A DNA stretch of 33,937 nucleotides. Source: a virus. Under the pieces are notes generated by a model. That model was not told where the DNA came from, made no database searches, and was given only the letters and a program-made list of their open reading frames with translations. Positions within the stretch are counted from its first letter, which is position 1. Every line of letters begins with the position of its first letter. Positions 29,349 to 33,937 of the stretch are shown piece after piece. The stretch covers positions 1-33,937 of IMG/VR virus record IMGVR_UViG_3300006112_000958. One strand, 5' to 3'. The position numbers were made by a program, and so were the translations under genes.

Positions 29349-29993
29349 ATGAATGATTTTTATGTTTACATGTATCTACGAGAAGACGGAACTCCTTATT
29401 ACGTAGGCAAAGGTAAAGGACGCCGCGCTTACCTCAATGGCCGCACCCCGCCAAAACCACCACAACTTGAACGTATAAAAATTGTTAAAGATAAGTTAAC
29501 CGAAAACGAAGCATTTACATTAGAGTGTAGGTTGATATCAGATTACGGTCGTAAAGATTTAGGTACAGGTATTTTACATAATCGTACAGATGGTGGGGAG
29601 GGTGTAGCAGGCAGGATAGCAACTACTGATTCTATTCAAAAAAGAATTGCCAAGAATACAGGAAAGAAACGTACACCCGAACAAAAACATCGAATGAGTG
29701 TAGCCCAAAAAGGTCGTAAAAAGATTGAATACACAGACGAACAGAAAGCTGAGATCTCTAAAAAAATATCAATTGCCCATAAAGGTAAACCCAAATCAGA
29801 AGAACACAAACAAAAACTATCAAAATATTTTACAGGAAGATCAAATGGACAACGCACAGAAGAAACTAAACAAAAGATGCGTAAACCCAAATCAGAAGAA
29901 CACAAAGCTAACATGCGTAAGCCAAAGTCTCCAGAACATATTAAAGCAATATTAGAAGCCAAAGCAAAAAAGAAACTTTTATCAATGAGTTAA
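29349..29993 (+). CDS. GIY-YIG homing-endonuclease-like protein with NUMOD3 repeats
   Basis: 214 residues. Nuclease domain: FYVYMYLREDGTPYYVGKGKGRRAY (GIY/YVG motifs and Arg), then FTLECRLISDYGRKD with the catalytic Glu. Residues ~90-214 hold about four NUMOD3-type helix units: RTPEQKHRMSVAQKGRKK, KAEISKKISIAHKGKPKSEEH, and KQKMRKPKSEEHKANMRKPKSPEH, with a direct KPKSEEHK repeat. These units bind DNA in phage homing endonucleases. It is inserted after the gp51-like gene, where T4 would carry gene 27. Its terminator hairpins at 29993-30040 follow at once. Its target is presumably a related phage lacking the gene. Confidence 0.9.
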   Translation: MNDFYVYMYLREDGTPYYVGKGKGRRAYLNGRTPPKPPQLERIKIVKDKLTENEAFTLECRLISDYGRKDLGTGILHNRTDGGEGVAGRIATTDSIQKRIAKNTGKKRTPEQKHRMSVAQKGRKKIEYTDEQKAEISKKISIAHKGKPKSEEHKQKLSKYFTGRSNGQRTEETKQKMRKPKSEEHKANMRKPKSPEHIKAILEAKAKKKLLSMS

Positions 29994-30040
29994 GATCACT
30001 GCGTGATCTGTTCTTTTCACTGCGTTCAAGAACATTTTTT
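29993..30040 (+). terminator. Twin hairpins ending the endonuclease gene
   Basis: The first hairpin is AGATCAC TGC GTGATCT (29993-30009), overlapping the stop codon. The second has GTTCTT / AAGAAC arms (30010-30033) and is followed by six T (30035-30040), making it a likely rho-independent terminator. Both loops contain the same TCACTGCGT string. Confidence 0.7.
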
Positions 30041-30083
30041 ATATCATTGATGTTTTTCAGTATCATCCAGATTAATCAGTCAC

Positions 30084-30108
30084 ACTTTGCCCAGGTAACG
30101 GGCAAAGT
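30084..30108. other. Strong 9-base-pair hairpin
   Basis: ACTTTGCCC and GGGCAAAGT pair perfectly around an AGGTAAC loop. No T tract follows on either strand, so it is not a terminator; it could be part of a structured RNA. Confidence 0.7.
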
Positions 30109-30241
30109 AAGAATTGTAGCATCATCCGAGTAGCACAATCACTTAGCGTTAGAGCAGTTACAGAGGCGGTTGTCCGGTACCTCGAGCTCCGTCTTTATAC
30201 AACGGCGGTTAATATCAAATACGCTAACATCTGATACCAAC

Positions 30242-30267
30242 GTGTGCTATCGCTAGCACGTCTTTTT
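30242..30267 (+). terminator. Rho-independent terminator in the gene-free region
   Basis: GTGCTA TCGC TAGCAC (30244-30259), extended by two G-T pairs, is followed by CTTTTTAG. It points rightward although no plus-strand gene lies between it and the previous terminator at 30010-30040, so it may end a ~200-base untranslated RNA. Confidence 0.65.
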
Positions 30268-30468
30268 AGCCTTATCTATCTCTTCAAACAATCAAACCGC
30301 GGCAATTAGCGATCTTGGTCCTGTTAAGGATACTGATTGAGTGCTTGCTACAGCGGCAAGTCTTCCGTCCCTCTTATCATCGAGTTGTCATGGGCACACG
30401 ATACTAAACCTGTGCGAGTCAATACTGTTTAATGGGTTTTACTGCGGTTAGACTTTGTGTCTGAAGAG

Positions 30469-30897
30469 TTAAATCTTGTTGATAATGTGTGAGCCATGTA
30501 CACGGACTTGTATGTGTCCGTTATAATAATCGTTTGTTTCTAATACTCTGCGAGCAAATTGTTCTCTCGCTTCAATATAACTACATTCTGATTTTGATTT
30601 ACAGTAATATAAAATTTCTCTTGTAAAGTTTTCAACACCCAGAGCTAGAATATCTTTTGTTAGTTCTGGGCTAGAGCCATAATAGGTTTGCCAATCTGAA
30701 TCTATTTTACCACGAATTTTCTTACGTTTCTTCTTACCATTTTTTAGTTTAACCATTTTGTAAGTGGTCTTGCTAAATTTTGCCAATTTTTTTCCAATAT
30801 ACTTCCTGCCAGATAAGTTATTTGTGATCAAATAAACAAATCCGACACAGTCTTCGGGTAGTGTTTCTACTTGAGAGTTTTCGTAAATCCATGACAT
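30469..30897 (-). CDS. GIY-YIG-type nuclease, conserved in T4-type phages
   Basis: 142 residues. GFVYLITNNLSGRKYIGKKLAKF holds the GIY-like and YIG motifs; basic KLKNGKKKRKKIRGK and SDWQTYYGSSPELTKDI follow; YCKSKSECSYIEAREQFARRVL has the Glu expected for metal binding. It lacks NUMOD repeats, which sets it apart from the two homing-endonuclease-like genes, and resembles the short conserved 'putative endonuclease' of T4-type phages, a resident rather than mobile gene. It is last in the gp46 operon, 20 bases after the second radical SAM gene. A repair or host-DNA breakdown role is possible. Confidence 0.75.
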   Translation of the reverse strand: MSWIYENSQVETLPEDCVGFVYLITNNLSGRKYIGKKLAKFSKTTYKMVKLKNGKKKRKKIRGKIDSDWQTYYGSSPELTKDILALGVENFTREILYYCKSKSECSYIEAREQFARRVLETNDYYNGHIQVRVHGSHIINKI

Positions 30898-30917: not shown

Positions 30918-31928
30918 CTACCAATTCGTTGCATAATCTTGATTTACTACCCGTTTACTACACTTAGTACGGCATTCCTGCCACTCAAACTGTTTAAAAT
31001 CTTCTGACCAAAACGCATCTTGAACTGCATCGGCTAAGGTTCTAGTTCGCAGATCAAAATTTTTGGCTATATCCTGCCACTCTGTATTGTGTGTATAGCG
31101 ATTAGCTACCCAACAACATGGAAACAATCTTCCCTGCGCATCTATATACAAGCCCTTGTTGCCTATCTCACACAGGGGCACAACTTCACCCTGGGGCTGT
31201 ATTTTTTTATATAATTCTAAATTGATAGCTTTAACTTGATCGTTGAGTCCCCGCTGGCTCAGTACTGTAACACGTCTTTCAAATCTATGCGAGCTGCTTA
31301 GATACCGATCGCTAGGTTGCAGGGGATCATCTATGCCATAATTAGGGTATATTTTTCCAAACTTAGTACTTAAGGTTAATTGAAAAGCATCCATTCCTAG
31401 CTTATTGGCCAGCGACCGCATGTAATCAATATGATCTTCGTTGAATTTAAACGCTATCGCGGCCCACACCAACCTGCACTTACTAGTGGCCCGTAAGGTT
31501 TCAATACCTTGGATAATAGACACAAAATCGCTGTTAACTCTGTATAAATTGTTACTTGCATTGTCGTATCCGTCAACACTAAAGTGTACTGTATCTTGCT
31601 CTGTTAATACACTACCTAATTCAGCCCACCATTCTGTTTTCTTATGACTGCCATTAGTAATAATAACAAATTCAACAGGCTTGATTGATTTAATGTAGCG
31701 TACGACAGGAATTAGATCATGTGCATAAATTGGATCACCGTCGTCACCACAGAATGTAATTTTTTCTACATTTTGTAATATAAATTCTGGTGTAAAATTT
31801 CTTTTAAAAAATTCTAAGTCTAATTCAGTATTGACCAGTGAGTCTGGTACTTCTTGTCGAGCGCAACGAGGACAACGCAGAGTACACTTACTAGATATTT
31901 CAATATGAAAATGCCAAGTGGCTAACAT
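30918..31928 (-). CDS. Radical SAM protein with SPASM-like C-terminus (second of pair)
   Basis: 336 residues. CTLRCPRC at 15-22 is the CxxxCxxC site for the 4Fe-4S cluster that cleaves S-adenosylmethionine. KITFCGDDGDPIYA occupies the place of the SAM-binding GGE motif, HFSVDGYD is a typical later barrel strand. The C-terminal Cys set (PLCEIG, GRLFPCCWVANRY, WQECRTKC) is SPASM-like and would hold one or two extra clusters, as in enzymes that modify peptides or proteins. Substrate unknown. It overlaps the other radical SAM gene by 7 bases, so the two are made together. Confidence 0.85.
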   Translation of the reverse strand: MLATWHFHIEISSKCTLRCPRCARQEVPDSLVNTELDLEFFKRNFTPEFILQNVEKITFCGDDGDPIYAHDLIPVVRYIKSIKPVEFVIITNGSHKKTEWWAELGSVLTEQDTVHFSVDGYDNASNNLYRVNSDFVSIIQGIETLRATSKCRLVWAAIAFKFNEDHIDYMRSLANKLGMDAFQLTLSTKFGKIYPNYGIDDPLQPSDRYLSSSHRFERRVTVLSQRGLNDQVKAINLELYKKIQPQGEVVPLCEIGNKGLYIDAQGRLFPCCWVANRYTHNTEWQDIAKNFDLRTRTLADAVQDAFWSEDFKQFEWQECRTKCSKRVVNQDYATNW

Positions 31929-32785
31929 AGCTCTACCTCACGTTGCCATTGGCTGTCGAATACAGTTACATTTTCTTTGGTAGTACATGTGGTAATACAA
32001 GTAACGTCAGCTAATTCCACATTATTCCAATTGACACTAACTTCTTGAATATCTTGAATAAAATTCTCTTGTCTTGCACCTAACCAGCAACATGGGCTAC
32101 GGCGTCCCCGTGCATCTATATATACACTTTGCTCTGCAAGTGCATGACAGTCAATCTTACCGGGGGTATATGTAGGACGATGCCAACCAACAGGTGCTTC
32201 TAATCCGTTAGTATATTCACGTTTGCTTACTTTAGCGCGAAACCATTTAAATCCCATATCACGGGCTAACTGTTCACACGCATCAACTTGGTGTTCGTTG
32301 TGTCGATATACTAGCATGTCCCAGTGGGCACTACCACCTGCGGCAATAAAGGTTGTTGCATTTTCCATTAACTTAGACCAATTGACTCCACGACGATAGA
32401 TATGATTAGTATCTTCTAATCCGTCAATACTAAAGACCGCATAGTCTAAAGGTTGATTAAACATGCCAGCAAGTTCACTCCACCAACGGACATTTTGTAT
32501 AGCACCGTTGGTATTCATGCCTAAGGTAATTGTGGGATTGGCAGTTCTGAAATAACGATAAATTTCTAGAGTATGCCGACCTGCTGCGGGATCACCGTAG
32601 TTACCACACATAAACATTTTATCCAATTGACTGATAGCCTCTGGAGATAAGTGTTGCTGTATTTGCTCTACGGTTAAATGATGCTGTTGAGATTTATCAA
32701 ATTGAGGATCTAATTCTCTTGCACAACTAGGGCAAGCAGCCTGACATACATCAGTAGACTCTAGATGCACAACCTTATACAACAT
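31922..32785 (-). CDS. Radical SAM protein with SPASM-like C-terminus (first of pair)
   Basis: 287 residues from the ATG at 32785; an in-frame TTG just before it is less likely. CQAACPSC at residues 14-21 is the CxxxCxxC radical SAM site; MFMCGNYGDPAAG stands at the SAM-binding strand; VFSIDGLEDTN is a later strand. C-terminal cysteines (KIDCHAL, GRRSPCCWLGARQ, CITTC) form a SPASM-like cluster region. It differs clearly from the second gene yet shares layout, so the two are ancient paralogues or partners. It begins inside the end of the gp46-like gene (11-base overlap). Substrate unknown. Confidence 0.85.
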   Translation of the reverse strand: MLYKVVHLESTDVCQAACPSCARELDPQFDKSQQHHLTVEQIQQHLSPEAISQLDKMFMCGNYGDPAAGRHTLEIYRYFRTANPTITLGMNTNGAIQNVRWWSELAGMFNQPLDYAVFSIDGLEDTNHIYRRGVNWSKLMENATTFIAAGGSAHWDMLVYRHNEHQVDACEQLARDMGFKWFRAKVSKREYTNGLEAPVGWHRPTYTPGKIDCHALAEQSVYIDARGRRSPCCWLGARQENFIQDIQEVSVNWNNVELADVTCITTCTTKENVTVFDSQWQREVELC

Positions 32786-33937
32786 CAATATCCGTATTAT
32801 AAGTTGTAAAGCCGTTTTCTTTAACTACGTGAAGTGTATTGTTGACACGACCCGCTAGTTCATCTTTGTGCGACACTAACCAAATTGACTTGTTAGCTTC
32901 GCGACTCATCTTTTTCAGGATAGCTAAGGAATTCTCAACTCCTGAACTATCCATACCGCTGTCTACTAACTCATCAATGAATAATAAGTTAATGGGTTGA
33001 TATAGACTTTCCCAAACATCGCGGAAGCTCCAGCTTAAGGATAAGATTAAGCGATTGCGTTCCCCACGACTTAAATTGTCAAAGTCTAAATCTCTACCTA
33101 ACTCTGTAATGGCTACAGTTAAATCATTATTAAATTTAACTGTGTGTGGTAAGCCAATACGATCAAGATATTGTCCCAAGCGGGCATTTAAATAACTTAA
33201 ATTCTGATCAATAATACGTTTACGAATAAACGAGTCTTTGTTAGTTAATAGTTTAAGCAAGAACTCCTGATGTTCTTTGATGTTAGTTAACTCATTGATT
33301 GTATCATACGATATTTCTTCTACACCCTGTGTTTGCATTTCAGCAATCTGCTCTACATACGGATCAGACTCTGCAACCTTAGCAGTAAGTTGTTTAACTA
33401 GATTGTCTACAGTAGCTTGATGGTGAATAGCATCCGATTCATTGTTATAAAATGTTACTGGACGCGGACCCAATTTGCCCAACCCATCGTGAGCAGACTG
33501 TAGTTCAGCCAAGGTGGCAACATACTGTTCCTGATTCTGCTGTGCTGTTGATAATTCTCTCTGCTTGAGTCCCATAACAGATTGGTGCTTTTCGTCATGG
33601 AAATCCTGTCCACAGGTATGACACGTATGATTCTCCAGCGAAACAAGTTCTGCTGATATCTTGCTAATTGTTTTTTCCTCACGGGAAATGTCCAGTTTTG
33701 TGCGACTGATCGCCGAAGATAATTCGTTGAGATCCTTTCGAGTCTGATCCCACGTTTTAAACGCCTGGTGTGCCTGAATCTCGGCCTGGATGTCAATTTT
33801 CTGTAGCTCTTCAATCGCTGATTGAATCTTGTTAATTTCTTCATCGTGTTTGTTGTTCCATAGCGTTTGTCTACGCTTTAGGCTTTCTATTTGTTCTTCG
33901 ATGCGTTTATTAGCATCGCCTACAGCTTTGATACGGA
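32775..33937 (-). CDS. 46: Recombination endonuclease subunit, gp46-like (SbcC/Rad50 type), 5' end outside window
   Basis: The frame is open from the right edge to TAA at 32775, giving the last 387 residues. Coiled-coil (SLKRRQ...KIQSAIEELQKI) leads to a zinc hook CHTC at 33612-33623 (CHTCGQDF), the CxxC by which Rad50-type proteins dimerise. After returning coiled coil come the ABC signature NLSRGERNRL, Walker B INLLFIDELVDSGMD and the H-loop WLVSHKDEL. With gp47 it forms the nuclease that resects DNA ends for recombination-dependent replication. A Met at 33575 is internal, not the start. Two radical SAM genes follow with overlap. Confidence 0.94.
   Translation of the reverse strand, partial: RIKAVGDANKRIEEQIESLKRRQTLWNNKHDEEINKIQSAIEELQKIDIQAEIQAHQAFKTWDQTRKDLNELSSAISRTKLDISREEKTISKISAELVSLENHTCHTCGQDFHDEKHQSVMGLKQRELSTAQQNQEQYVATLAELQSAHDGLGKLGPRPVTFYNNESDAIHHQATVDNLVKQLTAKVAESDPYVEQIAEMQTQGVEEISYDTINELTNIKEHQEFLLKLLTNKDSFIRKRIIDQNLSYLNARLGQYLDRIGLPHTVKFNNDLTVAITELGRDLDFDNLSRGERNRLILSLSWSFRDVWESLYQPINLLFIDELVDSGMDSSGVENSLAILKKMSREANKSIWLVSHKDELAGRVNNTLHVVKENGFTTYNTDIDVV

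What the first reader, a model, noticed from the sequence alone, without database searches (positions are those of the whole stretch)
30918..32785. Two overlapping radical SAM/SPASM-like genes translated directly from the end of gp46
Both proteins have CxxxCxxC plus a C-terminal CCW and CxxxC set, the layout of enzymes that modify peptides or proteins. They overlap each other (7 bases) and gp46 (11 bases), so they are coupled to a core replication/recombination gene. I see no precursor peptide gene nearby and no known pathway that needs two such enzymes beside gp46. Both replace the usual GGE motif with CG(N/D)(Y/D)GDP, suggesting a shared, specialised subfamily.
Basis: partly seen in the sequence, partly recalled or inferred. 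Interest (0 to 1): 0.62.

Follow-up and report, generated by a model that had tools for sequence, protein, structure and literature searches.

The report
Swappable radical-enzyme gene pair in phages
Two small iron-sulfur "radical SAM" enzyme genes ride as one removable unit behind a DNA-recombination gene of large lake-dwelling viruses of bacteria; they belong to a big virus-encoded set of such enzymes that probably builds an unusual chemical decoration, possibly on the virus's tail fibres, whose nature is still unknown.

Summary
In detail: radB (32785-31922, minus) and radA (31928-30918, minus) are genuine radical SAM genes overlapping gp46 by 11 bp and each other by 7 bp, with every cluster cysteine kept in all 43 and 47 aligned relatives. 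Refinements: (1) the C-terminal domain is a four-cysteine Twitch domain (BtrN-like), not seven-cysteine SPASM; (2) radA and radB are two old, separate clades, not a duplication; (3) coupling to gp46 is incidental. In 47 distinct gp46-anchored populations this junction is empty in 13, holds radB+radA in 7, radB alone in 7, and other radical SAM cassettes in most of the rest; two phages 97% identical across gp46 differ by the whole pair. (4) All 31 relative records searched carry several further radical SAM genes; in the seven stretches read in detail these form tandem arrays of N-terminal-Twitch enzymes, beside tail-fibre genes in the window's sister contig. In related phages a radA gene lies inside such an array. 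Best explanation: radA and radB are oxidative radical enzymes of a phage decoration pathway. The substrate (sugar or peptide) is not shown. Multi-radical-SAM T4-like phages were known; this family, exchange slot and array link were not found in the papers searched.

The parts
31922..32785 (-). radB: 287-aa radical SAM enzyme, C-terminal Twitch domain (core Cys14/18/21, auxiliary Cys213/232/263/267, CGNYGDP motif); overlaps gp46 by 11 bp
   Evidence: ORF; Pfam; alignment A2; AF2 pLDDT 91.8
30918..31928 (-). radA: 336-aa radical SAM enzyme, C-terminal Twitch domain (core Cys15/19/22, auxiliary Cys253/271/319/323, CGDDGDP motif); overlaps radB by 7 bp
   Evidence: ORF; Pfam; alignment A1; AF2 pLDDT 88.8
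32775..33937 (-). 3' part of gp46 (SbcC-like recombination endonuclease subunit); upstream border of the exchange slot
   Evidence: phrog_77 E=9.5e-48; empty-site comparison
30469..30897 (-). SegE-like GIY-YIG gene (142 aa) conserved at this place; downstream border of the exchange slot
   Evidence: PF19835; present in 141 loci; homologues in 493 phage records
30918..32785 (-). the radB-radA cassette as a unit, filling the gp46/segE slot
   Evidence: present as about 1.87 kb in L268, replaced by 44 nt in the otherwise 97%/92% identical L259

Best explanation
radB and radA encode two radical SAM/Twitch enzymes that travel as one cassette in a slot between gp46 and a SegE-like gene of large freshwater T4-like phages. 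Shown: enzyme class, the complete auxiliary cysteine set, the slot and its exchange, and the presence of additional N-Twitch radical SAM genes in all 31 relative records searched. Inferred: each enzyme cleaves SAM at the CxxxCxxC cluster, the 5'-deoxyadenosyl radical takes a hydrogen atom from the substrate, and the fully ligated Twitch cluster accepts the second electron, giving a two-electron oxidation (dehydrogenation, or the oxidative half of an epimerisation) as in BtrN. Also inferred: they add tailoring steps to a phage-encoded decoration pathway of which the array is the core, most likely acting on a sugar- or cyclitol-like group, since carbamoyltransferase, SGNH-like, amidinotransferase or glycosyltransferase-type genes accompany the array in various combinations; the product may be placed on tail fibres or the host surface. 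The gp46 overlap merely sets timing and amount of expression.
For: Class: PF04055 above cut-off; confident models. Twitch type: C-x12-G-x4-C ... CxxxC in radA and C-x13-G-x4-C ... CxxxC in radB, 47/47 and 43/43, matching the first half of the SPASM/Twitch motif and the four-Cys ligation described for BtrN (PMC6231123, PMC9012708). Profile neighbours in the PDB are SkfB, NifB, BtrN and MoaA. Exchange slot. Pathway link: NF033640 members over cut-off in 20/20 and 11/11 records, 5 to 19 matches each; tandem arrays read gene by gene in L173-L176, L178, L179 and L181. In L181, from the window's sister contig, the array lies beside a Peptidase_S74 tail-fibre gene and a carbamoyltransferase; an amidinotransferase lies by the arrays of L173, L178 and L179, the last confirmed by PDB match. 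A radA relative lies inside an array in L357 and overlaps an N-Twitch gene in L186; in L351 one sits by the array's unknown gene, a phrog_1962 glycosyltransferase and an A-type Fe-S carrier. A slot-mate radical SAM is followed by an SDR gene and fused to one in L037. No RRE domain, since the core starts at residue 14; the only sizeable intergenic space near the pair holds a structured RNA.
Against: No substrate is shown. The best profile match in the PDB, SkfB, modifies a peptide. The window itself holds no sugar-pathway gene, and in this lineage the pair lies away from the array. The accessory genes vary between the array stretches read, and the arrays of the other records were located by family search only. 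The glycosyltransferase-like genes beside the array of the window's sister contig had no Pfam or PHROG match. Array and pair co-occur in a lineage where N-Twitch genes are universal, so co-occurrence alone is no evidence of a joint pathway. Tail-fibre adjacency was confirmed in one contig only.
Confidence: 0.48

Rival explanations
1. radA and radB modify a polypeptide (for example a phage tail-fibre or host protein) by crosslinking, epimerising or oxidising residues; sugar-type enzymes nearby act on the same protein.
For: SkfB, a peptide-modifying Twitch enzyme, is the best PDB profile hit and aligns across the core (E 2.5e-6); several NCBIfam peptide-maturase models match weakly; in the window's sister contig the array sits beside a Peptidase_S74 tail-fibre gene.
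Against: No RRE domain, no precursor peptide gene seen, scores far below every maturase cut-off; partner genes in array stretches include carbamoyl-, amidino- and glycosyltransferase types.
Confidence: 0.28
2. The pair makes a modified nucleotide or cofactor (queuosine, MoCo-like, DNA hypermodification, or a viperin-like chain terminator).
For: Weak matches to MoaA and viperin models; MoaA is also a Twitch enzyme.
Against: Scores 26-27 bits against cut-offs of 180-284; four auxiliary cysteines unlike MoaA's three; no queuosine or MoCo partner gene among the neighbours listed.
Confidence: 0.1
3. The pair works with gp46/gp47 in recombination or DNA repair, as the translational overlap suggests.
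For: Conserved overlaps: 8, 11 or 17 bp with gp46, 7 bp between the genes.
Against: Slot empty in 13 of 47 populations and filled with other cassettes elsewhere; presence/absence between near-identical phages; two cultured phages near by gp46, Phosso and PA5oct, show no radical SAM annotation at this place.
Confidence: 0.04

Closest known systems
Radical SAM/Twitch enzymes (BtrN, SkfB, MoaA)
   Same: CxxxCxxC core plus one C-terminal auxiliary cluster site with the CX9-15GX4C motif; four cysteines as in BtrN (PMC6231123, PMC9012708)
   Different: Profile similarity is weak (E 2.5e-6 to 0.03); GGE replaced by CGxxGDP; no RRE as SkfB has; phage-encoded pair in an exchange slot; substrate unknown
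NCBIfam NF033640, N-terminal-Twitch radical SAM proteins (the tandem-array genes of the same phages)
   Same: Same two modules, PCC-type auxiliary motif and weak core similarity
   Different: Domain order reversed (Twitch first); radB 33 bits against a cut-off of 170
Radical SAM clusters of Campylobacter phages CP220/CPt10 (PMC2853527)
   Same: T4-related phage with 11-12 radical SAM genes, an amidinotransferase and sugar-transferase-type genes; radA matches at 22%
   Different: Genes not orthologous, different location, no slot behind gp46 described
Marine T4-like viral genome TARA_ERS488813_N000010 and pelagimyophages (PMC5332604, PMC7029224); Pelagibacter phage Mosig
   Same: Many radical SAM genes in the TARA genome, with an A-type Fe-S carrier; radical SAM cassettes in pelagimyophages; carbamoyltransferase beside MoaA-annotated genes in Mosig
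   Different: radA/radB family, cassette slot and this array not described in the passages read

Membership tests
Radical SAM superfamily | CxxxCxxC core and Radical_SAM domain above curated cut-off | tested here: met
   30.9 and 29.8 bits against 29.5; cysteines invariant in 47/47 and 43/43; confident AlphaFold2 models
SPASM domain | seven-cysteine motif CX9-15GX4C-gap-CX2CX5CX3C-gap-C | tested here: not met
   four auxiliary Cys plus one neighbouring Cys not kept in the wider family; CX2CX5C absent; PF13186 below cut-off for radA (18.1 against 21.5) and no hit for radB
Twitch domain | truncated SPASM, one auxiliary cluster: CX9-15GX4C plus later Cys ligands | tested here: met
   radA C253-x12-G266-x4-C271 ... 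C319xxxC323; radB C213-x13-G227-x4-C232 ... C263xxxC267. The cluster itself was not testable here
NF033640 N_Twi_rSAM | N-terminal Twitch then radical SAM, score over 170 | tested here: not met
   radB 33.4 bits, partial match; radA not listed; Twitch is C-terminal
RiPP maturase | RRE domain and a precursor peptide gene | tested here: not met
   core begins at residue 14/15; no maturase model near its cut-off; the only sizeable intergenic space nearby is a structured RNA region
Viperin | NF038283 score over 180 | tested here: not met
   26.1 bits for radA, none for radB; PADLOC pVip 31.9 bits, N-terminal part of radA only
GTP 3',8-cyclase MoaA | TIGR02666 score over 284 and three-Cys auxiliary cluster with open site | tested here: not met
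   27.4 and 15.5 bits; four conserved auxiliary Cys
BtrN-type dehydrogenase | fully ligated auxiliary cluster and two-electron oxidation of a cyclitol | not testable with these tools
   four-Cys pattern compatible; chemistry needs experiment; structure comparison closed

The most novel reading that the evidence does not exclude
These phages encode a radical-enzyme assembly line: a recurrent core of about five N-Twitch radical SAM enzymes plus exchangeable C-Twitch cassettes such as radB-radA. It makes an unprecedented decoration whose chemistry is switched by swapping cassettes, perhaps to vary the virion surface or to counter host defences.
Probability: 0.3. Interest if true: 0.8.

Novelty: new variant of a known kind. 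Interest (0 to 1): 0.52.

Why it matters
Phages with a dozen radical SAM genes have been reported without a known function since 2010. A lineage with a recurrent array, a defined swap slot, an empty-site control between near-identical phages and a family whose motifs can be tested makes the question experimentally accessible, and such enzymes are a likely source of new chemistry.

Tried and rejected
SPASM assignment: rejected on cysteine count. Tandem duplication: rejected, radA and radB are separate clades with full support. Obligate two-subunit enzyme: unlikely, since radA alone and radB alone both occur with no orthologue elsewhere in the contigs searched, though those are fragments of unknown completeness. 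Functional link to gp46: weakened by the empty and swapped sites. Precursor peptide: the only sizeable intergenic space near the pair carries a conserved structured RNA. Genome-wide co-occurrence profiling was considered and not run: too few near-complete genomes per class. Limits: IMG/VR records are fragments; the search for related loci keeps only the best 80 per scan; the literature search covers open-licence PMC papers only.

Full report
Observation. The window is a 33.9-kb virus record. radB (32785-31922, minus) and radA (31928-30918, minus) follow gp46 (phrog_77) with overlaps of 11 and 7 bp. Both pass the Radical_SAM cut-off and fold with mean pLDDT 91.8 and 88.8.

Anatomy. Across 47 radA and 43 radB sequences all core and auxiliary cysteines are invariant. 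The auxiliary set is C-x12/13-G-x4-C ... CxxxC: the Twitch half of the SPASM motif, four ligands, as described for BtrN (PMC6231123, PMC9012708). SPASM's CX2CX5CX3C is absent. A wider family of 22 members shares E, CxxxCxxC, R, G-x-x-GD, T, DG, R, W, N and three of the four auxiliary cysteines as invariant columns, the fourth being mostly conserved; a chromosomal Desulfobacula gene also has CGNYGDP. radA and radB form two separate clades at 100/100, so they are not a recent duplication. dN/dS is about 0.05-0.14, close to gp46.

The slot. IMG/VR gave 243 radB and 303 radA matches. In loci fetched by radA or radB the order gp46-radB-radA-segE is the commonest, with a 7-bp radB/radA overlap in 82 of 91. 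A survey anchored on gp46 alone gives less biased frequencies: of 72 loci in 47 populations, 13 populations are empty (gaps of 34-80 bp), 7 radB+radA, 7 radB, 13 a radA-like gene plus an N-Twitch radical SAM, 2 SDR plus a radA-like gene, 2 radA, 1 a radB-like gene with a B12-type radical SAM, 1 a single other gene that looks SGNH-like by sequence, and 1 mixed empty/radB+radA. The mixed cluster holds L259 and L268: 97.3% identical across gp47-gp46 and 91.8% from the segE side onward, differing by the whole pair. So the pair is a cassette, gained or lost as a unit, and not needed for gp46 function. Each gene can also stand alone: in contigs with only one, no orthologue of the other was found.

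The array. All 31 relative records searched hold NF033640-family genes above cut-off, 5 to 19 matches per record. Seven stretches were read gene by gene and show tandem arrays: L173, L174, L175, L176, L178, L179 and L181 from contig G013, whose radA and radB are identical to the window's. Their accessory genes differ. A carbamoyltransferase-like gene is visible in L173, L175, L176 (cut by the stretch end), L178, L179 and L181, not in the L174 stretch; only the L181 copy was tested, and confirmed. SGNH-like genes, by my reading of the sequences since those tested had no Pfam hit, are visible in L173, L174, L175, L176, L178 and L181, not in L179. An amidinotransferase-like gene is visible in L173, L178 and L179 only; the L179 copy was confirmed by its match to L-arginine:glycine and inosamine-phosphate amidinotransferases. 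Tail-fibre adjacency was confirmed in L181 only (Peptidase_S74). Glycosyltransferase-like genes there had no Pfam or PHROG match; one in L351 matched phrog_1962. In the other records the N-Twitch genes were located by family search only, so what lies around them is not known.

Link between pair and array. In L357 a radA relative lies within such an array, among N-Twitch genes; in L186 a radA fragment overlaps an N-Twitch gene; in L351 a radA relative sits beside the array's unknown gene, a glycosyltransferase and an A-type Fe-S carrier. A slot-mate radical SAM is followed by an SDR gene, fused to it in L037. Outside this lineage, Campylobacter phage CP220 carries radical SAM genes with an amidinotransferase, and Pelagibacter phage Mosig carries them with a carbamoyltransferase.

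Mechanism. Inferred: SAM cleavage at the CxxxCxxC cluster, hydrogen abstraction, then electron transfer to the fully ligated Twitch cluster, a two-electron oxidation as proposed for BtrN (PMC9012708).

Known and new. T4-like phages with 11-12 radical SAM genes were reported (PMC2853527, PMC5332604). The radA/radB family, the gp46/segE exchange slot and its link to the array were not found in the papers searched.

Noticed in passing
window 30030-30430 (-): RF01718 Polynucleobacter-1 RNA at 30286-30420 downstream of the SegE-like gene; conservation continues some 250 nt beyond the Rfam model, with base pairs changed on both sides, so the RNA may be longer than described.
   Followed up: partly
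L181:5127-17861; also L173-L176, L178, L179: Tandem arrays of N-Twitch radical SAM genes; a 356-366 aa gene of unknown function (LEKN[YF]C-type motif) is visible in six of the seven stretches as read (L173-L176, L178, L181) and in a related form in L179. Accessory genes vary between stretches.
   Followed up: partly
window 30469-30897 (-): SegE-like GIY-YIG gene, present at this place in 141 loci and with homologues in 493 phage records: a conserved phage gene rather than a sporadic homing endonuclease; PHROG labels it NAD synthetase.
   Followed up: partly
window 29349-29993 (+): Second GIY-YIG/NUMOD3-type gene between the gp26-like gene and the RNA region; its family was found in 12 loci.
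   Followed up: no
L037:8851-10545: Radical SAM enzyme fused to a short-chain dehydrogenase; unfused copies L051 and L083 are followed by an SDR gene.
   Followed up: partly
L354:1825-5130: gp46 appears interrupted by a 368-aa ORF and extra sequence, perhaps an intein or inserted element.
   Followed up: no
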